From positions 17,869-81,868 of the forward strand of contig NW_026570487.1 in the NCBI RefSeq assembly GCF_019649055.1: a DNA stretch of 64,000 nt, in the 5' to 3' direction. The DNA comes from Paramacrobiotus metropolitanus (taxonomy: Eukaryota > Tardigrada > Eutardigrada > Parachela > Macrobiotidae). The notes under the pieces were generated by a model. That model worked only from the letters and a program-made list of their open reading frames with translations. It was not told the origin of the DNA and searched no databases. Shown here one piece after another: positions 7,970 to 39,120 of the stretch. The translations under genes were made by a program, and so were the position numbers. The number at the start of each line of letters is the position of its first letter. Positions within the stretch are counted from its first letter, which is position 1.

Positions 7970-8555
7970 TTTACTTCAGGTTACTTGTATCTGTAAAAGT
8001 ATCTTTGGCGGTTATTGTTATTGCTGCATCTTGATGTGCTCGGGCTCCGCACCCATGATGGAGGAAACACTGGAATATTTGGTATTTCCTCTCTTTTATA
8101 GCATGAGCGACAGCTCTGGTACGCTATGATTAGCCTGTCGAAGTCAGTGCGCTTTGCTACTAGCGCTTCGTCTGCCAATGGCGAGAATATACCGCCCATT
8201 CCTAAAGTACGTGCGCCATTAGAAGTCGGTTTCGCCCAATAAATCATATCTACATATCCGACATCGCTCGAAGATACTGAGGTAATTATTATTTGCTCAT
8301 GCTAAACAGCGCAAAGCACCATAATGAACACTGACGAAATTGGTTAATCGATTCCGCGAAAAGCAAAGCGGCATAAAACAGGGAGTGGATGTAGTGTGGT
8401 GCGATTGGTGCCTTGTCTACGGTAGTTTGTCATACAGGTTCGAAAGTTCTGGATGCCAACAACATGCCAAGAGGTTTACATACAAACAGGCGCACCAAAC
8501 GTTTCTCTATGGACTGATCTTCTTTAAATTTTGCATAGAACGCACATTACTATAA
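7970..8555 (+). pseudogene. Decayed copy of unknown small gene U (compare 34.05-34.62 kb)
   Basis: Two blocks align to the 34-kb locus on the opposite strand. The first, at about 8010-8130, reads MCSGSAPMMEETLEYL, against MCSGFAPMMEETPEYF at the other locus. The second, at about 8340-8550, reads SKAA*NREWM*CGA..VVCH, against KSAENMEWMYGA..AVCH. The second block has in-frame stops, so this copy is dead. It lies 3' of serpin copy 1, exactly as the 34-kb copy lies 3' of serpin copy 2. Function unknown. Confidence 0.45.
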
Positions 8556-8687
8556 AGACTGTTTTTTACCGACTTCCATCCATTTGTTCAAAGTGTAAAA
8601 TTAATTTCAAAAGTTTTGAATGTCGTAACTACGGAAACGCCAGTAACGCCGACAATGGTTCACATAATGTAGTCATTAACAATTTTA

Positions 8688-10347
8688 TCAATAATGTTTT
8701 GCAGAGGGGTCAACAACATGCCCGATAAACAAAATGGCGCCGGTTTTTTCGTGCCGCAGCAGAAACATAAAGGGTCGATCGGCTGCGAATTCCACTCTTG
8801 TCTGGGGTGGCAGACTGCAATTTATGTATCTTACCATGGTCGCCGCGGACGCGACCGTTCCTCTTTCATTGACATCTGAATAAACATAATATCCAATTAA
8901 TAAGCTCTTGCTTTTTTGGCGTGTTTGATTAGACATATTCCGTCCCCCAGACTTTCTATGTAAAATCTTTCGACGTTTTTCTTCAAGCCAAACGCTTTTT
9001 TTTAGCACTTGCCTTTTTAAAAATTTAATTTAAATCATTTACATTTACGGTGCTGTTAATGACATACAGATGTCGAATTCGGTGATGTCTTCGTTCAGGA
9101 CGACCTTTATAAAAATGACGAGTTCGAACTTACGCAACAGCGCCTATGTGGCGTAGTGTTGCAAGTTTACCGACCAAGCTGGAATCGCTATGATTTTACA
9201 GGACTGGAAAGTTCACGTTTACCGTTTTCTGCTTACCGATATACACCTTCTGCTTAATCTTGTCAATGCAGAGGGAACGCGTCGATATCCCGGAGAAATC
9301 GGCGCTTTCCGAAAAAGCTGACCGCATACCCAGATCCCGCAGCGTGCTATCCAAATCGATGTTGTGTTCAATGGAAAACTTCGGTACCTGTATCGTTCCG
9401 TAAGAAATTGGCTGGAGAGAATCCAGCGCCTTTTGAACCAAAGCGGGCGTCAGGGCTCTCTGCAGGTCCGACAACGCTGAACCAGGTGTCCACGTAGCTG
9501 AGCCGACATTCTTCCCCGGGAGAATGAAACACGCGCTGGAGAGTTCGTCACCGTACCACAACTGCAGAAAGCGCGCTTCTCCCAGTTCCTTACTCTCGTA
9601 ATACCCACACCGCGTCAACACATGCATGGTATCCACCATCACCTGGCCGCCATCGGTCAGGGTGAAAGGTTTCTTCACCGTGTGCTCCTCAAAAAATCGA
9701 TGATCTCATTCCGCTTCAAAGTACACCGAACTAATCAGTATGAATGCGGTATCTTTGTCTATGTCGGAAAGAGCCAGTGTATCGCGAATATTTCCGGATG
9801 TGTGATTCTCCACAAATTCATTGATGCGTTGAACAGCTTCAGAGGGTGCGGTGCGGAAGCGAACAGGTTGGCATACGGTGTTAAATAAAGTGCGGAGAGT
9901 GTCGGTGTAGTCGGCGTTGAGAGGACAGTCTTCTTCAATAAATCCTGCTGTGGCTAGGAACAGCCTGTAGTTTGGAACAGGAGCTGTAAAAGCATGAAAG
10001 ATTCTCAAAATACGAACATTACAGTAAGCGTTTAACAACAAGACATTTCAGCGACTAATAGTTATCAGCAAAATCTGGAAAATACCATTTGGGACCGCTT
10101 AGTTTTGATCCGCATTCCTTTTCATCTCGATTAGCAACGCGCAGAAATCGTCTACAGTGTAGGCTTTGCTGAATCCCAGTAAATCCCCCATTTGTTGGCG
10201 AGTCTCTCCTTTTGCACCAACATAAGCCATGAGAACGGCGAACTCCGCACAGATCGGAGACCACAGCGAATTTCCTCCGCACGATCGCTGCCCACATAAT
10301 CTTTTATAGGGAGTCACACAAAAGTCTAAACGGTACTTAGTATCCAT
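8688..10347 (-). pseudogene. Serpin copy 1 (intracellular, clade-B-like), two in-frame stops
   Basis: Exons read on the minus strand: about 10347-10088 (from ATG at 10347), about 10002-9254, and about 8875-8688. The protein has no signal peptide. The start resembles helix A/B of serpins (NSLWSPICAEFAVLM..GAKGETR.QM). The middle has RINEFVENHTSGNIRDTL and the s3A strand ILISSVYFEAE, followed by TGA where serpins have Trp. The last exon holds the hinge DVNERGTVASAAT and the C-terminal signature ADRPFMFLLRHEKTGAILF..HVVDP. An extra TAA ends exon 1 early (after RNADQN) where copy 2 has CAA. Joining the last two exons in phase 1 gives KVYIDVNERGT, the normal serpin register. The intron between them, near 9110, holds the uninterrupted target site that is split by a 13.2-kb insertion in copy 2. 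Confidence 0.85.
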
Positions 10348-10896
10348 TTCCGTCGTCGTTCTGGATTGAAGCAGTACCGTGAATTTAGGAAAAGATCAGT
10401 TTCAAGAGAGTCTTTAATAATCACGTATTGAAAAAAATTTTCCTGGCTCAAAATGTATTGCAATGCCTTGCTCGCATCCCACATGCACATACGTTCTCAA
10501 CTTCTCGCTCTTGTCGTGTCGCATTATCATGCGGGCAAACCGGCAAAGTATCGTGAATGGATCAGGCTGTCCTCATCGATCGATCGATTCTCTGCGCTTT
10601 GCGCAACCGGCACAACGCGCAAACAACTTTTTCCATGTGGTGAGCAATCCAAGCACTCAACAGTCAACACTCAAGTATGTAAGCTGCGGGATATATGCAT
10701 AAACCGCGGACTATTTTCTCACATTACTTCTTGCCACAGTGTCTGCTTTAAAAAGCCCATGTCAATAAGATAAATAGTATTATCGAAGCTTTCTTAGGTT
10801 CATTTGCACAAGCACTAGAAACTGCAATGTTCGATTGCCAACTACAGTTTGCTACGAATGTCATTTAAAAACACGGAGCTGAGATTATGCTCGGTT
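10348..10896. other. Intergenic, no feature recognised
   Basis: Region 5' of serpin copy 1. Short open frames exist on the plus strand (about 10453-10773), but they have no recognisable motifs. I see no repeat or RNA gene. Confidence 0.5.
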
Positions 10897-20235: not shown

Positions 20236-20244
20236 CATTTTTAT
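20236..20244. repeat. Left 9-bp target-site duplication CATTTTTAT
   Basis: The same nonamer follows the right end of the insertion at 33467-33475. Serpin copy 1 has a single CATTTTTAT (reverse complement near 9110-9118), continuous with GTTCGAACTCGT on one side and AAAG-TCGTCCT on the other. That is the unoccupied site. Confidence 0.88.
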
Positions 20245-20365
20245 CGCGTCCGATCACTTCGGCCGCGCTACATTTCGGCCGCACAGGTTCACTTCGGCCA
20301 GCGTTCATTTCGGCCGTGGCTCACTTCGGCCAACACTCAATTCGGCCAACGCTCATTTCGGCAAC
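20245..20365 (+). repeat. Left terminal array of TTCGGCC units
   Basis: Six exact TTCGGCC cores and at least one degenerate one recur about every 16-20 bp, mostly preceded by TCA or CTCA. They run inverted relative to the array at 33353-33466. Confidence 0.85.
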
Positions 20366-20387
20366 TGGATGTTTCGACCATCACAGG

Positions 20388-20620
20388 TTTTCTTGGGTTT
20401 CCAACGTTTTCTAGGTTTTCCTATGTTTCCTTATGTTTTCTTAGGTTATTTAGGTTTGTTAGGGTTTCTTAGGTTTCTTAGGTTTATTTAGGTTTTTTGA
20501 GTTTCTTTCCTTTAGGTTTTTTGAGTTCTTTCCTTTCTTAGGTTTTCTTAGGTTTCTTAGGTCGTCTTAGGTTTTCTTAGATTTTCTTTTGTTTTCATAG
20601 GTATTCTCAGGTTATCCTTA
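20388..20620 (+). repeat. TTTCTTAGG-type simple repeat
   Basis: This is a degenerate array of 9-11-bp units of the type TTTCTTAGG / TTTTCTTAGG, directly internal to the left terminal array. The same unit occurs at 18720-18795, 37615-37680 and, reversed, at 37730-37950 and 39345-39720. Confidence 0.7.
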
Positions 20621-20639
20621 CTTAGGTGATTCAGGATAC

Positions 20640-23247
20640 GAAGGTTTTTTCTAATTTTTATGTTTACCCAAGTGTCGTACCGTGAAGTTTTCAGTACCCT
20701 CCCGTGACGACAGACTTCGTGAGATTCTGTCATCCGCCTTATAGAGAGTGAGCATGAGTTGGGACAAAACTTAACGTATGTATGGTAATATGAGCAATGG
20801 TGTGCGAAGTTAAGTGGTAATTAACCAGTTTGTGGGCTGTAAGCATTGGGCTTGCAAGCATGGAGGGTAAGTGCGTGTAACTTCATGTGTGTACTTCAGC
20901 TGAAAAACAATAAATAATAATTGGAAATAACTTTCCAATTTTCCTGCTCCAGTTAATGGCTCACTTCTTAATTATCCAATGTCCATTTGGTTAATCAGCT
21001 AACTACAGTAATTAAAAATCTCACCGCGATAAAGCTTTCCGCAATATCATCCAGTCCGTTACTGATCCGACCGAGAAATAATCTCCTTGAAAACTGCAAA
21101 ATCCTTGTACCGGCGGTCCACAATATGCATAAATTAACCATTACAAATGCGTCTAATTTCGGTTCAGAAGTTCTGCGTCCTTTTTCTACTGGCTGAATTT
21201 CTTGTTATGCTCCAACGGAAATCTGTGAGATCAGTGGGATCAGTGGGATCTCGTTACTTTTGTTAGCATTTATAAGTGTTCTCATTTGAACGATTACGAA
21301 ACAGATGCGCTATTTAACGAAATAAGTCCCGTATAATTATAGGAATTCTGATCTCTTGTCAGTTCGGATCGGCAATACGGTATTGCCGATCCGACTGAGA
21401 AAAGATCAATTCCTCGATGACGCCTGATATTGTTCCCATCGCAATCTCATATGGGAGATTCCGGTGGACACTCCGCGTTTGTAGTTTTGTTGCTGTTGAC
21501 TATTTGTTAATTGTTTCCGAACTCAACATTTTCCGCGAAATGATTCACTTGGTCCCCGTCTGCCAAGTTCAGATTAGCAGCTTGCCGGGGTGGCATTCAC
21601 ATAAAACCGCAGAAGCGCCCATAGATCGCCCGCGCGCGCAGGGAATTGGATACCAGATGCGCTCGATCGGCAGTGGTCAAATCGCTGCCTTGCGCGAGCA
21701 AGATCAAAACCTGGGAGTTTTGTTACATAGTTTTGTTACATAGTTTGACATATATTATTTTAAGATTGAGATTGATTCTGATGAAGAAAACAATTCTGCA
21801 TCAAGCAATTAGCAGAACTGCAATTATTAAAGAAAATTCCGCGAATTTTCTCAGACAGTTAAAGAAGAAAATTTGATAAATATGAAACAAACTAAACCAA
21901 CTTTGACAAATACTATAACTTGAATTACCTAATTAAATTCCAAGTACTCTTTACTGCTGGTGTCGAGAACTTTAAAGATGCGTGTCGAGTTTTCGTTTTT
22001 TACAGTGTTTGGTCAACGTATCGTTTTGTGGCTTTAAGACTTTCATGCAAATAGTTAAACTTTAAGTTGTCGAAAAAATTTGCAGAATTATGCCGAATTC
22101 GTTCTTGGTGTTACTACTGACAACCTGTGCATTGTTTGATTCGAGTTTCCTTCTGTAAATCGTATTGCATTTCCAATAAATTAATGAATCTTGCGAATGC
22201 ATAAATGCACAATTTCAACGCATACATGCTAAATCATTTCGTGATTTCTCTGCTTGCGCCATGCATTACGCACAATTTAATTTTGCTTAGATACTTGCGG
22301 TTGCAAACTGCAGTGTATTATCCTGCGACGTCCAATACCTAAAACGAACCAAACATTTGCTTATCAGAAATTTGATTTTGAGATTTCGACGGGTGTAATT
22401 TAGCTTAGCTACAAATAAGGCTTTCTTGATCTACGTAGTGCAGTCAACATAAATACCAAAGGGCAGCAATAACAAAATCTAGTAACGATATGCAAGTTGC
22501 GGGTGTGCGTACAACATATTACCGCGTGTATGCTGAACAGCAATTTTGACTGCAGTCCGTACATCAAGTGCTAGCGCCCTACCAACTCATTCAAGATGCT
22601 CGGTACAAGCAGTGCCGGATTTTATTGATTTCTTGTACATTGTTTGAATAATTTTATATAAGTGTGACAGGAAATCAATATAAAAATCTGAACAGATTTG
22701 AGGTTAGTTCAGAGATGAGTGGAAACTACAGGTTGCGTTTGAAATTAGAGGCAGACCGTTGGATGCTAAGCTGCAGTTGTATGTATGAATATTGTTTCGA
22801 TAATTTCTTGCTTATTAGCTTATTTTATAAATCGTATGCTATTTAACAACGTGATGGTATTACGATTTCTCACACAATCCAGTTTGCGGTTTTCTGCTTG
22901 CGCTTTTCTATATATTTTTGACTTTATTCAGAATATGAAAATTTCCACTGTCATTGCACGTACCTGCCTTATATAACCCATAACTGTGCTAGCAATCTAG
23001 TGCACTACTGCTATTGCATATTGGTTATTATTATAGATATAGATCAGATGTCTATTAGCAGCAGTGACCTTAAAGTTGCAAAAGCTACTGATAATTACGG
23101 AACTTGAAAATTAGGTATTTGAACGAATTATAAAACAAGAAAAAGGCCTGAGAGCAAATTCTCGGAAACTTAGAAAGATTGCTTACATATGTTTTTTTTT
23201 GCAAAAGAAACCACCTAGTTTCGAAAACACTAAATTTTTGGTTGCAC
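20640..23247. other. Non-coding interior of the 13.2-kb element
   Basis: AT-rich with no recognisable gene. A 31-bp hairpin with 15-bp perfect arms lies at 21364-21394 (TCGGATCGGCAATAC and its complement). An open frame at about 21417-21743 has no motif and is not supported. Confidence 0.45.
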
Positions 23248-24933
23248 TTAATCGTTAAAGAGTTTAATTGCCGCAATCCACCCGCAAAGGCGATGAACCT
23301 GTTCATCGCTGGGATCAGAGAGTTTCTCCTTCAAATCGCGCCCAAGGTCACATGGCATTTTGGTTGTCCCTTTATGGATTAGGCCAAGCAATTCAAGCAG
23401 TCGTGGATCAAGAACGAAAGATATCTCGCCGTCCAAAATGGCAGTACATTTATTCCAGTAAATGTCCTTGCACGGCAAAATAGCGCACGCAGATTTTAAA
23501 TCTGCAACACGAATATCTCCTACATTCTCCAAAGGTGGCGTGGAAATCAGATATCCATTTTCGTCGAAAGAAAACCCGCTTTGGTGTATAAAACGGCATT
23601 CCACACCAAAAAAACGGATATTTTTCAGTCTGAGTTCTTCTTCTTGTAACATAGCGCAGCAGCAAACTGCTTCAAACGCTTGCAACAAACTGCTACCAGT
23701 CATCCAACCACCTGGATCCGTAACAATAACTTCTTGGGTTGAGGGTGAAAAGCAGTAGAATAAAGGTGCGAACAGGAAGTAGATACGAAGGGATTCCATC
23801 CTTTCGGCCTCAGCCATTGTGTATAGTTTGATAAACCGTGTTATCAAAGGAGAAGTAAGGATTGTGTTCCATTTGAATCACACTGCACGCAGTTTTGCCT
23901 GGACAATTGTTGGCAAATGCGACAATATCTCTAGAAGCAGATCAGAAGCAATAGTGGATATTCCGTTGGATAAACAGATTGCTCCTGATGATTCTGTTTT
24001 CAGGATCGCTTGTCTTCGAGCGTGATCCAGGAGGTTTTTAGAAAATAAGTTGAAAATTTCCTGGAAATATTTAACACATTCACACATTCATGCAAGAAGG
24101 AGTAAGACACACTCTTTTCAAAATGGAAGAGAAGAAGTTTCGTGAAACGTGTCAACACATTCAAGCGAGCAAGAAAAAAATACTTGTATAATAAATAGCG
24201 TGTATGCAGCTAACTAAACACTGCCTGCAGAAACTGCTGCCGAGCAGCACGTGTTTACCTGTTCAATCCACATATCCTGAAGGTACGAGTTCGTGTTTTT
24301 GAAACTGCGTTGAAGGTAAATCATGCACCCATTCCTAATTTCAATGCCCGCAACGCCCGTGCTAGGTAAAGGATGGATGGTACGGTTGAATGCAGGGATA
24401 GCATCTGTGAAATACGAAGAACAGCCACCAGGCAATAAAGAAGCTCTCTTTTTAAAAGTTCCTTCCTTAACGGGATTTTGCTTCGCAGTTCTCTGGGGGT
24501 TACCGTTGTCGAAAGTAGTAGCATCAAGGTCTTGCTTCCAGCGGACGTGCGTCAAGGGCACAAGTTTCACGTTTTCCTCATTTTCTCCGCAGTATATGGC
24601 TACTAAATTGTAACTGTGGTGTTCGAAGCCGCGAGATAAATTGAACAGCTTGGCGGGACTCCATTTCAACGGGCCAGACATACTGTCGCGCACCAGTATC
24701 TCAACTGGCGGAAGTTCCTCTGATGCCGCGTATCTCATGGCGAGGTCAACTCCATCCAGATATTTTTCGTTCAAAAAAATTCGGTTGAAATGTATAAGTT
24801 CTTGCCGGCGCCCATCACAAAAAAAGTCGATTAACAACCCGTCACGTGCGACATCCACTACGCGGCCATGGAAAACGCGACCGTCAGAATCCAAAACATT
24901 CACACTGTTCCAGTTGTATGATAGAGACTCCAT
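23248..24933 (-). pseudogene. E-type Agenet/F-box gene inside the 13.2-kb element, one UGA
   Basis: Exon 1 is 24933-24259 (225 codons, ATG at 24933, donor CAG|GTAAAC) and exon 2 is 24060-23248 (271 codons with stop, acceptor TTTCCAG). Exon 1 has barrel 1 (WNSVNVLDSDGRVFHGRVVD), barrel 2 (PLKWSPAKLFNL), the KH0-like opening KEGTFKKRASLLPGG and the end GIEIRNGCMIYLQR. Exon 2 has the F-box IASDLLLEILSHLPTIVQAK followed by LRAV-TGA-FKWN. The TGA at 23880-23878 replaces the conserved F-box Cys (VCxxWN). Otherwise exon 2 is open to HRLCGWIAAIKLFND. The exon-3 cap found in all other complete copies is missing, perhaps lost. A splice acceptor just before the ATG suggests a 5' UTR intron. It is more diverged from A, B, C and D than they are from each other. 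Confidence 0.75.
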
Positions 24934-25660
24934 TTCTGTACCTGCATGAAAAACCAAAAAGCGAACCGGAGAGATTTTTCTTGAATAAACTTTATCAAGT
25001 CGCAAAGCGGGTTACAGTAGAAATTTAAATGGGGAAATTAAAATCAAGAACACATGGCGAGCCGTTGCGGTGCAGCAGATCGTATTACTTTGAAATTTTC
25101 ACTTTGAATTTAAGTAAGCCTTTTTACCTTTTTTCTGCAAATTAACGCCAAATATTATTGTTATACCTGCTTTGCAGACGTATTGATAATGTTTTGCAAC
25201 TGACATTCCAACGAAACGCTAATTCTTCTCACGTATTGAAATTTATTTGCAGTTCCAACAACGAATACATTAAGGTCTCTTACTGAATCTTTTTTTTGCA
25301 GGAATCCAAGCGATGCTCCGAAGTTCTTGATCACTTACCACAAAAAAGTATTTTAAAAAACTATATTCAACACTGTTAAATCAACGTGAGAGAAAACAAC
25401 AGAAGTGTGGAATGTTTGCAAATTCCAAACCAATGACAAAATGTTTTACGCCGCTCTGACAGACTGAAGTGTTGCACACGAAACTAAAATGCGTCACGAT
25501 TTCTGAGCAGGCAGTTTTTGTACGGTGTGATATATGAACTGAACTGATTTCACTTTTGCTCGAGTCCTCTAAACAGAAAACGTCGCGCTTCTGATTTCGA
25601 GGCTAACACATTTTTCGTTCTCGAAAAAACGACTCGACGTTGAAACCCCTCACGTTCGAC
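24934..25660. other. 5' flank of the E gene, no gene seen
   Basis: AT-rich. TTTTTCATGCAG|GTACAG just above the E start could be an acceptor of a leader intron. Nothing else recognised. Confidence 0.35.
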
Positions 25661-25666
25661 GTTTAA

Positions 25667-25832
25667 AGCCTCCCAGCCTCCCGGCCTCCCGGCCTCCCGG
25701 CCTCCCGGCCTCCCGGCCTCCCAGCCTCCCGGCCTCCCGGCCTCCCAGCCTCCCGGCCTCCCGGCCTCCCGGCCTCCCAGCCTCCCAGCCTCCCAGCCTC
25801 CCAGACTCCCAGCCTCCCAGTCTCCCGGCCTT
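25667..25832 (+). repeat. GGCCTCCC microsatellite/minisatellite
   Basis: About 20 tandem copies of the 8-bp unit CCTCCCGG, with A and G variants, run without interruption. Reading frames across it encode Gly/Arg-rich repeats and are artefacts. Confidence 0.95.
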
Positions 25833-26269
25833 CGCCCCGATAGCGCGCCGAATTAAGCGAGCGCGCGAGCCTCGCCCGGATGTTAAGTAGGCCTGGAACT
25901 GCTCGTGGGTTAACGAGTCCAGTTCCGACGGGTCCGAGCTAAGACGCTGTTGTCTGAACAAGAACAAATTAGAATTTCATAAACACCAAATTAGAATTTC
26001 ATAAACAGTTTTGCCACACAGTTGTTTACTGTAAAGCTGTACAGGTCATCGGTCACTTCTGGTTAACACAACATAACTATTGTGCTGTATAGTGACTATA
26101 CAGTAAAAACAGACATGCATAAATATAAACGTTCACATAAATATGTGTATATATGTAAATTTATGTAAATAAATAAATGTATATCTATGATGTATCATAA
26201 ATAAATGTACACATAAGTTTTAGTGTACACTCTATATTTATATACGTACACAGATGTACGTTACGTTTA

Positions 26270-26890
26270 AAAATTGTGCGTTAGCCAAGGCAACCTACCG
26301 TAAAAGCGCAGTCCCCCCCGCCCAGGCGCGACCTGGGCGTCCTTTCCGAAGAAGAATTCGGTGTGGGTCATGGAGTCCAGGTCCATGGGGGCGTCGCAAG
26401 TCGCGTACACCTGCTTCTTGGGCATCTTGCTGGGCAGCGGCACAAACACGTGTTCGTTCTGGTGCGTAGCGCGCCCCGTGGGACGTCTACGTAGTGGCAG
26501 CCAGCGATAACCGGCTTACAAGTGTCGGCCGGCTTCGCGGGGAGGCCCTTCAATTTTGCACTAATGGCGGTAAAGAAATGGACTCACTAACACCGAAGAT
26601 TGTTGATAGCACGAGCTGGCGTTAAGAGGCACCGTGGGCAACCTGCGGCCGTTGAGTATTGTCAGAGGGGGGCCTGGCGACGTAATCGGGCGTTGTGGAT
26701 GGTCTTCCCGGCGAAGGGGTCGGAGGAGTTGAAGACGGTGGTGGCCGGCCTGGCGCTGTCGACAGCTTCGCCCTCCGGAAAGGGCATGGAGCGCTACTGC
26801 GCGTCGCTGGTGTTGCCAAATTTGGTCGTGGGCTGAGGAACGGCCGCTGGTGTTACCACGACTTCCCGTCGCATCTCCGTTCAATGCTTA
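26270..26890 (-). pseudogene. Left-arm copy of a GC-rich gene remnant (SAXO-like motifs, tentative)
   Basis: Fragments on the minus strand: MPFPEGEAVDSARPATTVFN, then SSDPFAGKTIHN, then after a +1 shift DYVARPPSDNTQRPQVAHGA. Beyond a probable intron come KPVIAGCHYVDVP and VPLPSKMPKKQVYA, then DLDSMTHTEFFFGKDAQVAP. Repeated T-x-H/Y plus DYV or EFFF spacing recalls SAXO/FAM154 microtubule-binding modules; this is a tentative resemblance. The base composition differs strongly from all neighbouring genes. The frame is broken, so it is a relic. Confidence 0.4.
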
Positions 26891-27214
26891 AAGTCTGCTA
26901 AAAAGCGCAAGCAGATAAATCATAAGGCAGCCAGCCAAGCATAATGTAGCAAATACAAAAACTCAATGGATATTTAGCCGAAGCACGCAATCGCGCAAGA
27001 TAAAATAACAAAATTTATTTGTGCTAGCAGAAGACAGCAGAAAGGGAAAAACTGAAAATAAATGATGAGAGATTTTGTTATTTTGTCTTGCGCGATTGCG
27101 TGCTTTGGCTGAATATTTATTGAGTTTTTGTGTTTGCTAAATTATGTTTGGCTGGCTGCCTTAAGATTAAGTTGCTTGCCCATGCGCTTTGTAGCGGACT
27201 TCAAGCATTGGCCG

Positions 27215-27810
27215 GGGATGCGGCAGGAAGTCGGGGTGACAATCAAGGCCATTTCTCTCTCTGCCCACGGCCAAGTTTGGCAGCCCCATCGATGCGCAGT
27301 CGCGCTTCATGCCCTTCCCGGAGGGCGAAGCGGACGACAGGACGGCCACCGCCGTCTTCCACTCCAACGACCCCTTCGTCGTCGAGACCACCCACAAGAC
27401 CCCGCTACGTCGCCAAGCCCCTCTCCGACAAGACCCAACGGCCGCAGGTCGTTCACGAGCCACACACGGTGCCCCCTGGACGCCAGCTCGTGCTATCAAT
27501 AGAACTACGGTAGCCGGCATCCTCGGTGTCAGTGAGTCCATTCCTTGACCGCCACTACTGCAAAACTGCAGGGCATCCCCGCGAAGCCGGCCGACAGTTG
27601 CAAGCCGGCTATCGCTGGCTGCCGCTACGCAGACGTTCCCACGGGGCGCACTACGCACCAGAACGACTTCGTGATGGTGCCGCTGCCCAGTAAGGAGCCC
27701 AAGAAGGTGCAGGTGTACGCGCCCTTCCGCCCACGCTCGGCCGGCTGGGCGGGGGGAGGGGTGCGCTTCTGCGGTAGGTTGTCTTGGCTAACGCACAGCT
27801 TTTGAACTTA
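27215..27810 (+). pseudogene. Right-arm copy of the same GC-rich gene remnant
   Basis: Mirror copy of the left arm: SRFMPFPEGEADDRTATAVF, HSNDPFVVETTHK, then shifted YVAKPLSDKTQRPQVVHEPH. After an apparent acceptor AAACTGCAG (near 27571) come GIPAKPADSCKPAIAGCRYA and FVMVPLPSKEPKKVQVYAPF. The frameshift before YVA is shared by both arms, so it predates the palindrome. The best-preserved stretch is 27309-27480. Confidence 0.4.
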
Positions 27811-28219
27811 ACGTACATCTGTGTACGTATATAAAATAGGCTATGTAATACAACTTTCTACGCTCATATAATTTTTGTGTACATATAGGATACATATATT
27901 TATGATACATATAATTATATTCTCTTATTTACATATATGTACAAATATTTATGTGCACGTTTATTTAAGCATATCTATTTGTACTGTATAGTGTATAGAC
28001 AGATATACCATATGACTGCGTAAGCATATCTATATATTATATAATTCTCTGTTTTGCTGCACTACTATTTTCTGACCTACATATTACTTATTCACACAAC
28101 CTGCTGGCCGACAGGTAGTTAACCGACAGATCGCTTTTCGATGATTTTGCTGCCCGCCGCTTCGCTGAAACTGTTTTGTGTACCGACAGCTTATTCACCG
28201 GTCTGGCTTGTATTTCTCT

Positions 28220-28385
28220 CCTGTTCCTCCCTGGTGTTCAACCCTGGTGTTCCACCCTCCTGTTCCACCCATCTGTTCTAGCCTAGTGTTCCACCCCTCC
28301 TGATCGCCCCTTCTGTTCCACCCTGCTGTTCCACCCTGTTGTTCCACCCTGTTGTTCCACCCTGCTGTTCCTGCCTAGTGTGCTA
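28220..28385 (+). repeat. TGTTCCACCC tandem repeat
   Basis: About ten degenerate units of roughly 14-18 bp share TGTTCCACCCTG. No coding sense. Confidence 0.85.
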
Positions 28386-29560
28386 AGGGCGGTGCCATCT
28401 GCTAATAAGTTTCCAACCTAATGCGTATTGTTAGAGCTCGCCCGTTAAATATCGAGTATTTCAAAGTTCGATTTACGTTTCGTATTCTGTGTTATGAAGC
28501 TGGTCGATCAGTTGAAACTCCTTCCATTTCAGTTTGCAAAAAAACGTTTTCTTTTGTAAAAAAACATGGGAGAACGGATTCCGCAAAATTCATACAGAAA
28601 AAACGCCATCTGGATGGTTTTTGACTCGCTGACCACTACAAAAATTTTTTACCAAACCCGCCAACGACAAATGTTCACTTTTAATGATTTTTAACAAGCT
28701 ATTTTTATTTTTTAGTCAAGACAAGAAAAATTATAAGAAAAATCAGTTACGGTCACCGATACATCAAAGATCGAGCAGTTTTCTGGAGCGTACTGCTTGC
28801 TGGAGCTACAGTGGGTTCGAAGATATTCTGTAGGCAGTCCGAAGATATTCTATTGTCAGATTTATCACAAAGTACTTGTACGACGATAAAAACTTGTATG
28901 AGTATTCTACACGTTAGATACACCTTTAAAAATCTATGTTTCTGAAAGCCAAACACGTGAAATGAGCACTGATATATATGGGTAAGGCGGTCAGTGTTAC
29001 CGACTTCGCAAAAATTCGAAACGAAGCGGAATCTATCGAACGTGTAGGGAGAACAGAAGAAATGTTACATACCGTCCTAAACCAAATTGGTGATAAAGAT
29101 TTAACGTGTTCGTTGATGTGATCGCTTCCGACGCGGAAAAGTTCACGAAAATCACGATAATTATAGCAGAAAGCCGATGTAAGAGTGGCGGCCGAGCAAG
29201 TTCAAATCAAAATTGACACCAAGTGAAAATAATAACTCCATTTACGGTAAATGTCATCTGATCAGTCGAAAAGAGCCATTAAGAAGTGAAAAGCATAAGT
29301 AAAATTCATGAATTGGTGCAGAACCAAAATAAAAAATATCACGCATTGTTCTAAATAAATTAAAATTATTTTAAAAAAACTTCGTGTCTGTAAAAGCCTA
29401 GAATGGGGTTGCTCTAGTTAATTAATAGCAGAAAATGGAGGCTGTAAGAAACGGGCCATCATGATTTTCTTATAGTTAACTGCCTTCTACTGTTTAATTC
29501 GAAACATGAAACGTAAACGTTACATACGAAAGGGAAATGCGGTGCCGGCTATTTCCAACA
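28386..29560. other. Non-coding interior of the 13.2-kb element
   Basis: AT-rich. Short open frames on both strands show no motif. No repeat of note. Confidence 0.4.
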
Positions 29561-29569
29561 GCAGCTTTC

Positions 29570-29930
29570 TTATGATGTATATACGGTGTAGGTTATGGGA
29601 TATTAATAATCCCGGGATGCAAAGACAGCAGCGGTCCGTGATGATACCTATCTAGCCGCATGAAGGGCATGCGGGGACAGCCGGGGATGATGCAGCGGCA
29701 ACCGATGCAGCAGTTTATCCTTTTTCGGGCTATTTCGATACCCTGGAGTCCATGCAGCCCCTGATGCGCATGATGCCCAATTAGCCGGTCGCTTTTACTT
29801 CCGCTGTGCAGCAAAACCAGCAACATCACCCTTAACCCAGCTGATCAGAATTTCCATCCGTCCCAATCCGCAGTTCCGTCCCACCTGCCCAGTGCCCAGT
29901 TTTGCGGTCAGGGAGTAAGGAAGTATTTTA
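29570..29930 (+). pseudogene. Remnant of a Met/Gln/Pro-rich coding segment
   Basis: The plus strand reads MRGQPGMMQRQPMQQF in one frame, then FDTLESMQPLMRMMPN and AVQQNQQHHP in the next, separated by stops and a frameshift. The Met/Gln/Pro bias resembles low-complexity tails of RNA-binding or secreted matrix proteins, but no family can be named. It is richer in GC than the flanks. Confidence 0.35.
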
Positions 29931-30714
29931 CAGCATTTATTTATTTCGCGAGTGACAAAGCACATGCTTGTACCAGTATAGCTGTCAAACATACTAAATA
30001 TTTCAGAAATTATTATAAAACGCTAAACAAAGAGTAAAGTACATTTAACTATTTGTTATTTATACGAAAATTACTATGGCCAAGTCCTTTCACTCCCGTT
30101 TTTTATAGCCACCCTCTTCTGCTGTTAATTAAATAGAGGAACCTTATTCTGGGTTTTTACAGGCACACAGTTTTCTTAATTTTTGATATTTTTATTTTAT
30201 TTGCGACGACGCGTGATATTTTTTATGTTGACTCTACACAATTTCATGAATTTCACTTATGTTTTCCACTAAATTAATGGGTCTGTTCGACTGCTCAGAC
30301 TGCCGACCGATCATAAACCTTTTACGGGTTTATTACTTTACTTGATGTAAATTTTAAACAGCACTTGCTCGACCGCAACTCTTACATCGACTTTCTGCTG
30401 TAATTTATGTGGCCTTTTAGTTGTTTGGAATAGCCGGCACCGCCTTTTCCCTTCGGCTTTGTACTATACGTTTCGTGTTTCATTTTTCGAATTTTTAGTT
30501 TCTCGTTTCTTATTTTTTAAGTTTCAGTGTTTCAATGTTTCATTGTGCCGAATTTACTGTTTCTGATTTACCATTTTGTAGGTATCCGCTTCGTGCTTCG
30601 CGTTTCGTATTCATGTGTGTTTCAATGATTCAGTTCGTAGTTCGAAGTGCATGTTTCTTGTTTCATGTATGTTTTTGTTTCAGGTTCAGTTGCGTAGTTT
30701 TAGTAATCATGTTT
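29931..30714. other. No gene; degenerate lead-in to the minisatellite
   Basis: From about 30470, GTTTC-rich degenerate units foreshadow the array that follows. No gene seen. Confidence 0.45.
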
Positions 30715-31660
30715 AGTTTCAGACTTTCAGTGTTCGTGTTTCACTGTTTCACTGTTTCAAAGTTATCACGTTAAGTTTCAGACTTTCATTGTTTGGTGTA
30801 CACGTGTACATGTGTTTCACTGTTTCAAAGTTATCAGGTTTAGTTTCAGACTTTCAGTGTTTGTGATTCACTGTTTCACTGTTTCAGAGTTATCATGTGG
30901 TGTACACGTGTTTCACTGTTTCACTGCTTCAAAGTTATCATGTTTAGTTTCAGACTGTCAGTGTTCGGTGTACACGTGTTTCAGTGTTTCACTGTTTCAA
31001 AGTTATCATGTTTAGTTTCAGACTGTCAGTGTTCGGTGTACCCGTGTTTCAGTGTTTCACTGTTTCAAAGTTATCATGTTTAGTTTTAGACTTTCAGTGT
31101 TCAGTGTACACGGGTACACGTGTTTCAGTGTTTCGCTGTTTCAAAGTTATCATGTTTAGTTTCAGACTTTCAGTGTTCAGTGTACACGGGTACACGTGTT
31201 TCACTGTTTCAAAGTTATCACGTTTAGTTTCAGACTTTCAGTGTTCGGTGTACACGGGTAACACGTGTTTCAGTGTTTCACTGTTTCAAAGTTATCATGT
31301 TTAGTTTCAGACTTTCAGTGTTCAGTGTACACGGGTACACGTGTTTCAGTGTTTCACTGTTTCAAAGTTATCATGTTTAGTTTCAGACTTTCAGTGTTCA
31401 GTGTACACGGGTAAAGTGTTTCACTGTTTCAAAGTTATAATGTTTAGTTTCAGACTGTCAGTGTTCGGTGTACACGTGTTTCAGTGTTTCACCGTTTCAA
31501 AGTTATCATGTGTAGTTTCAGATTTTCGGTGTTCGGTGTACACGGGTACACGTGTTTCAGTGTTTCACTGTTCCAAAGTTATCATGTTTAGTTTCAGGCT
31601 TTCAGTGTTCGGTGCACGCGTGTACACGTGTTTCAGTGTTTCACTGTTTCATAATGCTTG
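30715..31660 (+). repeat. Minisatellite, unit about 68-76 bp
   Basis: About 13 tandem units, e.g. starts of TTCGGTG at 30963 and 31031, 68 bp apart. Each contains TGTTTCAAAGTTATCATG, TTTAGTTTCAGACT, TCAGTGTTC and GTGTACACG. Longer units of about 75 bp carry an extra GGGTACACG. Several frames stay open through the array, giving repetitive peptides such as VSLFQSYHV; this follows from the repeat and is not evidence of a protein. Confidence 0.92.
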
Positions 31661-32305
31661 TTTCCTGTTTCCGAGTGTACACGCTTCTTTTCGTATTTTT
31701 CAGCTTTTTATCAGCTTCGTGCTTCGCCTTTCATCTTTCACGTCTCGTGCATTGTTTCAGTGTTCCACTGTTTCAAAGTGCTTGTTTCCTAATTAAAATA
31801 TTCACATTTGATCTTTTCGCATTTCATGCAACACTGCGCGGATTTTAATTTCGTAGGTTTAGTTATCAGAAGGAGCTTCAGAGTGTCGTTGTTTCAGTGT
31901 TTCAATGCACTAGTTTCTGGTTTGCGATGTTTTACCAGGTTTATGCTTCGTTGCGAAACGCAGCACATTAAGATGCTTCGCTGCACTCCGGGTGTTAATT
32001 TATGTCTATTGTTTTATCACCTTATCTTGACTGCGATGTGTGTGTAAAACGACTGGTTGTGTACAACTCTTGCTATAACGCACTAAAAAAAGTTTTGTCC
32101 CAGCTCGGGTAATCTATGGCCTTATAACGTTTGACGAGGTGTTAATCAAAGCAATCGGGAAAGTAGGACATGATGGTGATATTAACTTCAAAAATTGCTC
32201 AAACAAATTGTGCGTGCAAAACCAAATAGAAAGTTAGAAACCGATCAAAATCTTGCGTATAACGAGAACTTGCAAGGTACAGAATAAAAGTTTTGGTAAA
32301 CCTTA
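31661..32305. other. No gene recognised
   Basis: Tail of the GTTTC-rich sequence, then AT-rich DNA up to the retroelement fragment. Confidence 0.4.
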
Positions 32306-33274
32306 TTAGCTCTCCCAGCCTATTTGGCTTCGATTCATTCCGCTTCCGGACTCGTGTCGCTGCTGCTTACCAATCACGCGGCCGTGGACGCCACTAACGC
32401 AAAGGAATTGTGGAAAGCGAAAAGTGGTCAGACAGAACTCCCGGAATCGATCTGCCTGAAGTCGCAGCGCGCATGGGATGTGTCGTTCTGCACCATGTCG
32501 CTGTCGGCACTGCTGAAAGTCTTCCGGGACGATGAAACCAACCGAGCCCGCCTCCTTGCCCAGTCGAAACCGGAAGCAGGTATGCTGCTGATAAATGCTT
32601 TGCCGTCGGCGCATATCGGAAATCTCTTAGATGACGACACCCTCAAGATATCAGTCGGACTCAGGCTGGGCGCAGTCATATGTGAAGCACACGCATGTGC
32701 CAAATTCCGCAAGCCTGTAGATGTATACGGCCACCATGGACTGTCATGCTCGTTTTCGGCCGGGAGGCATGCACGACACGGTGCTTTGAACAGCATCGTG
32801 TGCCGATCATTGGTTTCGGCGGGCATTCCAGCAAAACTCGAACCTCGTGGCACAACCCATACGTCCGAACGTCGCCCAGACGGATGCACGACCTTTGCCT
32901 GGAAACGTGGTATGTGTCTGGCATGGGATGTCACCTGCGTCGACACTGTCGCCTCATCCCATACCAAGTCCACTTCCTTAGTTGCCGGATCCACCGCTGC
33001 CCAAGCCGAAGACAAGAAAGCCAAACTCTATGCGTATCTTGTAGGCAGATACATTTTTGCAGCACTAGCCTTTGAAACGTTCGGGCCCTGGGGAAAATCG
33101 GCATCTGCTTTAATAAAGGAAATCGGCAAGCGGCTACAGCAACACACCGGGGAACCTCGCTCACACGAATTCTTACGTCAACGTCTGTCGATCGAAATAC
33201 AGCGAGGCAACGCGGCTTCCGTGCTGGGGACAATGGAAGGCGCGGATAAATTAGAAGAAATTTTGTTGTTGTAG
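32306..33274 (+). pseudogene. 5'-truncated reverse-transcriptase-element C-terminal region, copy 1
   Basis: One open frame begins abruptly at about 32306 (ALPAYLASIHSA, no ATG) and ends at 33274. It matches the region that follows the polymerase domain in a class of invertebrate RT proteins (family knowledge). The landmarks are VDVYGHHGLSC, SAGRHARHGALN, RRPDGCTTFAW, LAWDVTCVDT, VGRYIFAALAFETFGPWG and RQRLSIEIQRGNAASVLGT. RPDG followed by WDVT could be the catalytic core of a PD-(D/E)XK-like nuclease; this is inferred. The polymerase itself is absent. AATAAA lies at 33319, and the right terminal array of the 13.2-kb element starts 79 bp after the stop. Most likely a truncated retroelement copy trapped inside the element. 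Confidence 0.6.
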
Positions 33275-33352
33275 TTCTCTATTTGTTGCCAATTCATGTA
33301 TTCTAACTGGCTTGTGCTAATAAAGTGCACCCTATTTCCGCTGAAATGTACC

Positions 33353-33466
33353 ATGGCCGAACTGAATGACGGCCGAACTGAATTGCGGCCGAAGTGAGTG
33401 GCGGCCGAAAAACTTTGGCCGAAATGAGCGCGGCCGACATAAAAAAGGCCGAAGTGATCGGTAGCC
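33353..33466 (-). repeat. Right terminal array of GGCCGAA units
   Basis: Six to seven GGCCGAA/GGCCGA cores with flanking CTGAATG, AGTGAGT or AATGAG form the inverted counterpart of 20245-20365, ending GAAGTGATCGGTAGCC. Confidence 0.85.
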
Positions 33467-33475
33467 CATTTTTAT
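33467..33475. repeat. Right 9-bp target-site duplication CATTTTTAT
   Basis: Identical to 20236-20244. It is followed directly by AAAGTTCGTCCTGGACGA, the continuation of the serpin intron (copy 1: AAAGGTCGTCCTGAACGA). Confidence 0.88.
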
Positions 33476-38100: not shown

Positions 38101-39120
38101 TTAAACGTTAAAAAAACAGCCAAAGTCGTTATTGCTATCAAAAATCCTAGGACGCATATTCAAGGTACCCAAAACAGCAGCGGCATTTCCTTTCACTACA
38201 GCTAGACTTAATCTCTGCTTCAAAAACGCAGCAGAACGGGATTCCCCTGTCACGTCGCGAATCTTTCTGCCAGCGAAACGAATGAGCTCCATAAAATCCG
38301 AACCGAAAGTGCCAAAAGTTTCGACTGCCAGGGCGTAAAACAGGTAACCCATCCTTTCCACGTAAGCGTATTTACGGCGTTTAACGTCTTCGGCCATATG
38401 CGCAACACTACCGGATGCACTCGCACTTGCCCGGACATGCGATGCGGCTACCGTGTCCCAGCATGTAGCGTCCCATACCAGCGCCTTACCATCCCGTACC
38501 GGGACGAGAGTCATGCCGTCTGGCCGCGTGTTGTTTATGCCTGACAGTCCGAGTGGCTCGCTTTGACATGGATACCCCGCATGTTCCAAAGCCCGCTTTA
38601 TTTCGGCATTTAGTTCCGTATGTCTAGACCATCTGCCTCTGCTGCTGGTACAAGAAAGACCGTGGTGGCCATTCGTCTCCACATGGCTTCCGCAGTTCAC
38701 GCAATCGTGCTTTTACTACTGGAAGTCCGAAACGAAGTGCCACACCGATTCGTACTTCTTCATCCCGCAAAAACGTACGCAAATTTGGTGCAGGCAACGC
38801 ATTCAGCCATGCGCCCGAGTCACGGTGTTGCGCAGCTAACAATACCGCTCGATTCGTTTCGTCGGTAATGGCGAGCCTCATTGACACCACTGCTTTATCG
38901 ATCCATGGCCGATCCCATGCAAACTGGAATTTCCTTTGCTGTGTAACAGGGGGTTCACAGCCTGTCTCTTCCATCCAGCGTTGCACAATCGGATCGAGCG
39001 ATTCCTCCTAGCAGGGCGATAGATTGTTGAAACCAAAGAGATCACCGAGTACGCCGATGCCAAAAAGGCAGGAAACACTAGCGACTTGGCACTCCGTATA
39101 CGGAAAAATGTCCAACACAC
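38101..39120 (-). pseudogene. Reverse-transcriptase-element C-terminal region, copy 2, frameshifted
   Basis: Minus-strand segments in order: FPAFLASAYSVISL (near 39070); QRWMEETGCEPPVTQQRKFQ and the Trp/Arg-rich stretch to 38650; then after a shift CGSHVETNGHHGLSC, RWSRHTELNAEI, TRPDGMTLVPVRDGKALVWD, YLFYALAVETFGTFG and KQRLSLAVVKGNAAAVLGTL. This is the same region as 32306-33274 but diverged and longer at its 5' side, with a frameshift near 38690 and others upstream. It is flanked on both sides by TTTCTTAGG-family repeats. The polymerase domain is not present. Confidence 0.6.

What the first reader, a model, noticed from the sequence alone, without database searches (positions are those of the whole stretch)
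20236..33475. 13.2-kb insertion with arrayed inverted ends and a 9-bp target duplication, with its empty site in the same window
Serpin copy 2 is interrupted in its last intron. Both junctions carry CATTTTTAT once, and serpin copy 1 has the nonamer only once at the same place. The insert ends are inverted arrays of about 16-bp units with a TTCGGCC core, starting GATCACTTCGGCC at both ends. This defines an element to the base, of Foldback/MULE type by its end structure and duplication length. It is very large for that class and carries gene cargo.
Basis: seen in the sequence. Interest (0 to 1): 0.85.

Follow-up and report, generated by a model that had tools for sequence, protein, structure and literature searches.

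The report
Transposons nested in a serpin intron
A 13.2-kb insertion in an intron of a serpin gene, probably of a tardigrade, is a common cut-and-paste transposon of about 0.8 kb that two other mobile elements later broke up, so it is a clean example of a known kind and not a new giant transposon.

Summary
The insert 20245-33466 is flanked by CATTTTTAT, which occurs once at the matching place of serpin copy 1. Its ends are inverted arrays of ~16-bp TTCGGCC units, each capped outside by a 7-mer, CGCGTCC at one end and GGCTACC at the other.

The genome holds 260 exact end motifs. Of 20 short pairs examined (0.43-1.06 kb), 7 have exact 8-9-bp target duplications. One 3.5-kb copy with the same ends holds broken FLYWCH and MULE transposase pieces. 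The Mutator/Foldback assignment is therefore right; the anatomy matches Tm1 of root-knot nematodes and Muta1 of a mosquito.

'Very large, with gene cargo' is not supported. Short copies match only three pieces of the window copy, about 810 bp. The rest is two insertions with their own duplications: an 11,375-bp element of another family (8-bp GCCTTATA) and a ~1-kb 5'-truncated LINE-like fragment (7 of 8 bp). The one recognised host-type gene, an F-box family copy with an in-frame stop, lies in the 11.4-kb element; how it got there is unresolved.

This is a new member of a known kind.

The parts
20236..20244 (+). left copy of the 9-bp target duplication CATTTTTAT
33467..33475 (+). right copy of the 9-bp target duplication CATTTTTAT
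9109..9117 (-). single nonamer at the empty site in serpin copy 1
20245..33466 (+). outer element (Mutator-like, Foldback-like ends) with two nested insertions
20245..20251 (+). left 7-bp cap CGCGTCC
20258..20379 (+). left array, eight TTCGGCC-like units
33355..33453 (-). right array, seven TTCGGCC-like units
33460..33466 (-). right 7-bp cap GGCTACC
20736..20743 (+). left copy of GCCTTATA, 8-bp duplication of nested element 2
20744..32118 (+). nested element 2, 11,375 bp, caps GAGAGTGAGCAT and CATAGATTACCC outside inverted GAGYTGGGACAAAACTT
32119..32126 (+). right copy of GCCTTATA
20744..20900 (+). left end of element 2 shared with other copies
31923..32118 (+). right end of element 2 shared with other copies
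30702..31651 (+). GTTTCAGTG-type minisatellite, present as a short stretch in element-2 copy L035
20901..30470 (.). interior of element 2 with no counterpart in its other copies; mosaic of repeats and a gene copy; right border approximate
23251..25011 (-). F-box family gene copy (open exons 24217-25011 and 23251-23877) with an in-frame TGA in the F-box part; probable pseudogene
26095..27992 (.). 1.9-kb imperfect palindrome (73%), related pieces elsewhere in the genome
32300..32307 (+). ACCTTATT, left member of the 7-of-8 duplication of the second nested insertion
   Evidence: read
32308..33328 (+). 5'-truncated LINE-like fragment (homology to other copies spans 32305-33324)
33329..33336 (+). 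ACCCTATT, right member of that duplication
   Evidence: read

Best explanation
A non-autonomous Mutator-like element of about 0.8 kb, with ends built as inverted arrays of ~16-bp units capped by unlike 7-mers, was inserted by a FLYWCH/MULE transposase into the last intron of serpin copy 2 and duplicated 9 bp. Later an unrelated DNA element (8-bp duplication) inserted into its interior, and a 5'-truncated LINE-like copy inserted beside its right array, swelling it to 13.2 kb. The array units are most likely repeated binding sites of the transposase, which cuts at the border between cap and duplication. Shown: the duplications, the caps and arrays, short copies colinear across both breakpoints, and transposase remnants between the same ends. 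Inferred: that this transposase moved this copy, that the units are its binding sites, and the order of the two nested insertions.
For: Empty site and 9-bp duplication. 125 forward and 135 reverse exact end motifs in the genome against 0 and 2 for the reversed control. Among 20 short pairs: flush 9 of 9 in 5, exact 8 bp in 2 more, 7-8 of 9 in 3, none in 10; of 420 mismatched pairings the best was 6 of 9, once. Both caps present in 17 of 20, with one base changed in 6 of these. None of the 25 loci L001-L025 matches the window inside 20744-32117 or 32308-33328, while L004 and L019 match all three outer pieces. Element 2: exact 8-bp duplication in 4 of 6 two-ended copies. LINE-like fragment: 33 of 42 genomic matches end at query position 1033-1038, and 18 of these 33 start inside the query at 36-602. 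L022 has the caps and arrays at both ends and FLYWCH over Pfam's cut-off.
Against: 10 of 20 short pairs have no target duplication and 3 of 20 lack one cap. The longer loci L021 and L025 have none, and L022's flanks agree at only 6 of 9 bases. L022's transposase is broken, and its MULE pieces score 13.2 and 15.7 bits against a cut-off of 27.6; none of the 39 genome matches to PF10551 lies in L022. The LINE-like fragment's duplication is 7 of 8, read by eye, with 4 bases (33325-33328) outside the homology. No Pfam domain was found in that fragment or in two relatives.
Confidence: 0.9

Rival explanations
1. The 13.2-kb copy is the complete, large, cargo-bearing element (giant Foldback or Pack-MULE), and the short copies are internal-deletion derivatives.
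For: Non-autonomous copies of DNA transposons often arise by internal deletion, and a gene copy does lie between the ends.
Against: Both missing stretches are bounded by target duplications in the window (8 of 8 and 7 of 8). Both belong to families found elsewhere without TTCGGCC ends. None of L001-L025 shares either stretch.
Confidence: 0.04
2. Assembly artefact: unrelated sequence was joined into the serpin intron.
For: Several junctions lie in repeats, and no reads were examined.
Against: Flush 9-bp and 8-bp duplications and a 7-of-8 one at nested levels; serpin splice borders match across the insert.
Confidence: 0.03
3. Serpin copy 1 is not an original empty site but an excision product, so the insertion is older than the serpin duplication.
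For: Precise excision at ~90% is reported for Muta1 with 8- or 9-bp duplications at the donor site in a yeast assay (PMC5225508, passages).
Against: It needs an extra event; copy 1 shows no remnant of caps or arrays at 9109-9117.
Confidence: 0.03

Closest known systems
Tm1, Mutator/Foldback family of root-knot nematodes (PMC3169594: abstract and other passages, section 5, part 1 of 2 of section 11)
   Same: Unlike 7-bp motifs at the two outer ends, inside 9-bp duplications; tandem units of 13-15 bp; many MITE-like copies; FLYWCH plus MULE transposase in a 2.6-kb element; one copy with another element nested in it; empty paralogous site.
   Different: Unit sequence and caps differ (Tm1 caps CGGTTAA and CCTACCC); here no purine-rich motif D was sought; the transposase copy found here is broken.
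Muta1 of Aedes aegypti (PMC5225508: passages)
   Same: 8- or 9-bp duplications; nine 12-bp subterminal units with 3-4-bp spacers (about 16-bp period); over 300 putative non-autonomous derivatives; called a type 2 Foldback element there.
   Different: Muta1 has a 10-bp palindromic terminal motif and 7 identical copies, and moves in yeast; here the caps are unlike 7-mers and activity is unknown.
Phantom clade of MULEs (PMC6446971: passages)
   Same: 8-10-bp duplications and a FLYWCH finger in part of the clade; host range includes arthropods and other invertebrates.
   Different: No phylogeny against named Phantom sequences was made; that paper has no occurrence of 'tardigrad' in its main text.
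Drosophila Foldback (FB) elements (recalled, not looked up)
   Same: Inverted ends made of tandem repeats; 9-bp duplication (recalled).
   Different: No sequence relation tested; arrays here are short (~100-120 bp).

Membership tests
Mutator-like elements (MULE), Phantom/Muta/Tm1 type | 8-11-bp target duplication | tested here: met
   Window 9 bp with empty site; exact 8-9 bp in 7 of 20 short pairs, none in 10 of 20
Mutator-like elements (MULE), Phantom/Muta/Tm1 type | MULE transposase between the same ends | tested here: met
   L022: pieces 54-62% identical (core, C-terminal) to the over-cut-off MULE locus L049. Caveat: broken frames and sub-threshold Pfam scores
Mutator-like elements (MULE), Phantom/Muta/Tm1 type | N-terminal FLYWCH finger | tested here: met
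   PF04500 28 bits, cut-off 23.6, in L022
Mutator-like elements (MULE), Phantom/Muta/Tm1 type | place in the Phantom clade of a transposase tree | not tested
   No named reference transposases were used
Foldback-type ends (structural class) | composite inverted ends with tandem repeat units | tested here: met
Pack-MULE | host gene fragment in the MULE's own interior | tested here: not met
   The F-box copy lies inside element 2, which has its own ends and an 8-bp duplication
Element 2 as hAT, P or MULE | 8-bp duplication and a matching transposase | tested here: inconclusive
   8-bp duplication exact in 4 of 6 two-ended copies; no transposase recognised by eye among ORFs of at least 130 aa in L050-L054; no profile search was run on those ORFs
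LINE-like retrotransposon (second nested insertion) | common 3' end with variable 5' truncation | tested here: met
   33 of 42 matches end at 1033-1038; 18 of these start at 36-602
LINE-like retrotransposon (second nested insertion) | reverse transcriptase domain | tested here: inconclusive
   No Pfam family in the fragment or in the L065/L066 ORFs; the copies reach only the C-terminal part

The most novel reading that the evidence does not exclude
Element 2 belongs to a family of small DNA transposons (other two-ended copies 102-1,231 bp). In this copy it captured a whole F-box gene with several kilobases of flanking DNA and carried it into a serpin intron: Pack-type gene transport by a non-MULE element inside a cluster where F-box and serpin genes multiply. 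A second bold point: FLYWCH-MULE subfamilies of this genome keep a ~16-bp spacing of their end units while the unit core changes (TTCGGCC, TTTTGGCC, TTCGGCAT, TTCGCCTA), as if transposase and array co-evolve at a fixed helical spacing.
Probability: 0.25. Interest if true: 0.5.

Novelty: new member of a known kind. Interest (0 to 1): 0.25.

Why it matters
It gives a base-exact stack of three insertions with the empty site kept in a paralogous intron of the same window. It adds a Tm1/Muta-like Foldback-MULE family, with relatives that carry different arrays of the same spacing, to a genome that is probably a tardigrade's. It also shows how nested insertions can imitate a giant cargo-bearing transposon.

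Tried and rejected
Giant element or Pack-MULE: rejected because the extra DNA has its own ends and duplications.

Transposase at the strongest MULE matches: I fetched 22 of the 39 PF10551 places (12, 10). None has the TTCGGCC array with both caps. In L038-L048 no array was found with the pattern used and no match to L022's transposase pieces. Ten of the 22 (L049, L055, L057-L064) match those pieces. Of these ten, L059, L061 and L063 have ~16-bp arrays at both ends, L060 at one end, L049 at one end with a weak second, and for the other five none was found with that pattern; tandem-repeat finding was run only on L022, L060 and L061.

Longer loci L021, L023, L024 and L025: no clean cap-to-cap pair with a duplication, so not used as complete elements.

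Third nesting level inside 20.9-30.5 kb: no duplication or resumed element-2 sequence found.

Identity of the F-box copy's N-terminal exon: only a sub-threshold BPL_C hit at E 0.044 and no solved relative.
Full report
OBSERVATION. The insert and its duplication are real. CATTTTTAT lies at 20236-20244 and 33467-33475. The left flank aligns with 10455..9109 and the right flank with 9117..7997 on the minus strand, so the two alignments share exactly one nonamer. The left part is a serpin exon by Pfam (PF00079, 94.8 bits). The intron is 361 bp in copy 1 and 13,581 bp in copy 2, with the same splice borders. The ends are arrays of eight and seven TTCGGCC-like units, 14-19 bp apart. The element begins 7 bp outside GATCAC, with CGCGTCC on the left and GGCTACC on the right.

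GENOME. The window lies in G000, 169.8 Mb in 533 contigs. Total size and longest contig seen (4,484,719) are close to the published Paramacrobiotus sp. TYO assembly (170,483,395 bp, 684 scaffolds, longest 4,484,941; PMC8277472, passages read). The host is therefore probably that tardigrade; this is inferred, not shown.

FAMILY. GATCACTTCGGCC occurs 125 times forward and 135 times reverse; the reversed control gives 0 and 2. From the places that one search listed (contigs C1 to C35 only) I chose 20 head-to-head pairs and fetched them. Taken from the outermost motifs they are 434-1,055 bp long. Both caps are exact in 11 of 20; in 6 more one cap differs by one base; 3 of 20 (L008, L010, L018) lack one cap. 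Flush 9-mers are identical in 5 of 20 (L002, L004, L009, L012, L013). L003 and L019 have an exact flush 8-bp duplication, although they score only 1 and 4 of 9 by the 9-mer measure. L005 has 8 of 9, L017 and L020 have 7 of 9, and 10 of 20 have none. In 420 mismatched pairings (window included) the best 9-mer score was 6, seen once. No such control was run for the 8-bp measure.

WHAT THE 13.2 KB CONSISTS OF. Short copies match the outer pieces of the window copy. The middle piece near 32.1-32.3 kb is matched in 10 of the 20, and L004 and L019 align through all three pieces. None of L001-L025 matches the window inside 20744-32117 or 32308-33328 (low-complexity filter on). The three pieces, 20245-20743, 32127-32307 and 33337-33466, add up to 810 bp. 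At the first breakpoint the window has GCCTTATA at 20736-20743 and 32119-32126. Between them lies an 11,375-bp element with caps GAGAGTGAGCAT and CATAGATTACCC outside an inverted GAGYTGGGACAAAACTT. That pattern occurs 11 times in the genome, two of them in the window, and 0 times reversed. Of six copies with both ends (window, L028, L029, L031, L032, L035), four have exact 8-bp duplications and two (L031, L032) do not; two of the exact ones are only 105 and 102 bp long. Four other fetched loci show one end only. At the second breakpoint lies a ~1-kb fragment between ACCTTATT (32300-32307) and ACCCTATT (33329-33336), read by eye. It has 42 listed matches in the genome, itself included, from 475 candidates of which 40 were scored. 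33 of 42 end at query position 1033-1038, and 18 of these 33 start inside the query at 36-602. That is the pattern of a 5'-truncated LINE-like retrotransposon. No Pfam family was found in it or in two relatives, so the label rests on the insertion pattern and on recall.

CARGO. Element-2 copies L031 and L035 match the window at 20744-20900 and 31923-32118/9, and L035 also matches the GTTTCAGTG minisatellite. The stretch from 20901 to about 30470 has no counterpart in them. It holds one F-box family gene copy on the minus strand, with open exons 24217-25011 and 23251-23877. An in-frame stop (TGA) stands in the F-box part, where open-frame relatives in this window carry an amino acid. The F-box label comes from two relatives in the window that pass Pfam's cut-off; the insert copy was placed by alignment to them, 26-28% in the C-terminal exon. 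The DNA 23100-25150 gave one match, itself. The N-terminal exon's protein gave 144 scored matches of 923 candidates, itself included, the others at 29-50% identity. The rest is repeats, including a 1.9-kb palindrome and satellite-like pieces. No duplication bounding this stretch was found. Capture by element 2 and stepwise later insertion both remain open.

TRANSPOSASE. PF10551 has 39 matches in the genome, none of them in L022. L022 (C1:571200-575150) has the caps and arrays of this family at both ends. It holds FLYWCH (28 bits, cut-off 23.6), two MULE core pieces below Pfam's cut-off (13.2 and 15.7 against 27.6) and a C-terminal piece. Against the over-cut-off MULE locus L049 the pieces are 54-64% identical, except one stretch at 43%. 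L022's frames are broken and its flanks agree at 6 of 9 bases, so it looks old. Of 22 MULE loci fetched of 39, ten match L022's pieces. Among these ten, L059, L061 and L063 have ~16-bp arrays at both ends with other cores, L060 at one end, and L049 at one end with a weak second; five showed none with the pattern used. In L059 CTTACCGC(G) flanks both sides, 8 or 9 bp depending on where the cap begins, read by eye. Unit spacing is kept while the core changes, which fits repeated transposase binding sites; this is inference.

KNOWN KIND. Tm1 of Meloidogyne has unlike 7-bp caps inside 9-bp duplications, tandem 13-15-bp units, MITE-like copies, a FLYWCH/MULE transposase, and one copy with a second element nested in it (PMC3169594; passages, section 5 and part 1 of section 11). 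Muta1 of Aedes has 8- or 9-bp duplications and nine 12-bp units with 3-4-bp spacers, and is called a type 2 Foldback there (PMC5225508, passages). Phantom is described with FLYWCH in some members and 8-10-bp duplications (PMC6446971, passages). MULEs are already listed for tardigrades (PMC11071193, passages). The searches listed no paper that I recognised as describing this family; they cover open-licence PMC papers only, and most of the listed papers were not opened.

VERDICT. This is a nested stack of mobile elements whose outer member belongs to a known kind.

Noticed in passing
L059, L060, L061, L063, L049: Related FLYWCH-MULE loci carry end arrays of the same ~16-bp spacing but with other cores (TTTTGGCC, TTCGGCAT, TTCGCCTA, TTCGGCYGCC).
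   Followed up: partly
window 1368-63952 and L-less genome places: A very large family of F-box genes with a shared N-terminal domain of no Pfam match (144 scored protein matches in the genome), clustered with serpins in this window.
   Followed up: partly
window 38101-38712, minus strand: A second retrotransposon-like open frame, 46% identical to the fragment at 32308-33328.
   Followed up: no
L028 and L029: Element-2 copies of only 105 and 102 bp with perfect 8-bp duplications.
   Followed up: partly
window 28539-28664: Matches tandem arrays with a ~160-bp period on contigs C177, C48, C7 and C17, satellite-like.
   Followed up: no
L015 and L016: Two copies about 330 kb apart on C5 share the same 40-bp flank at the GGCTACC end but not at the other end, as if a segment was duplicated or recombined at the element.
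   Followed up: no
window 26095-27992: A 1.9-kb imperfect palindrome (73%) with related pieces on C120 and C59.
   Followed up: no
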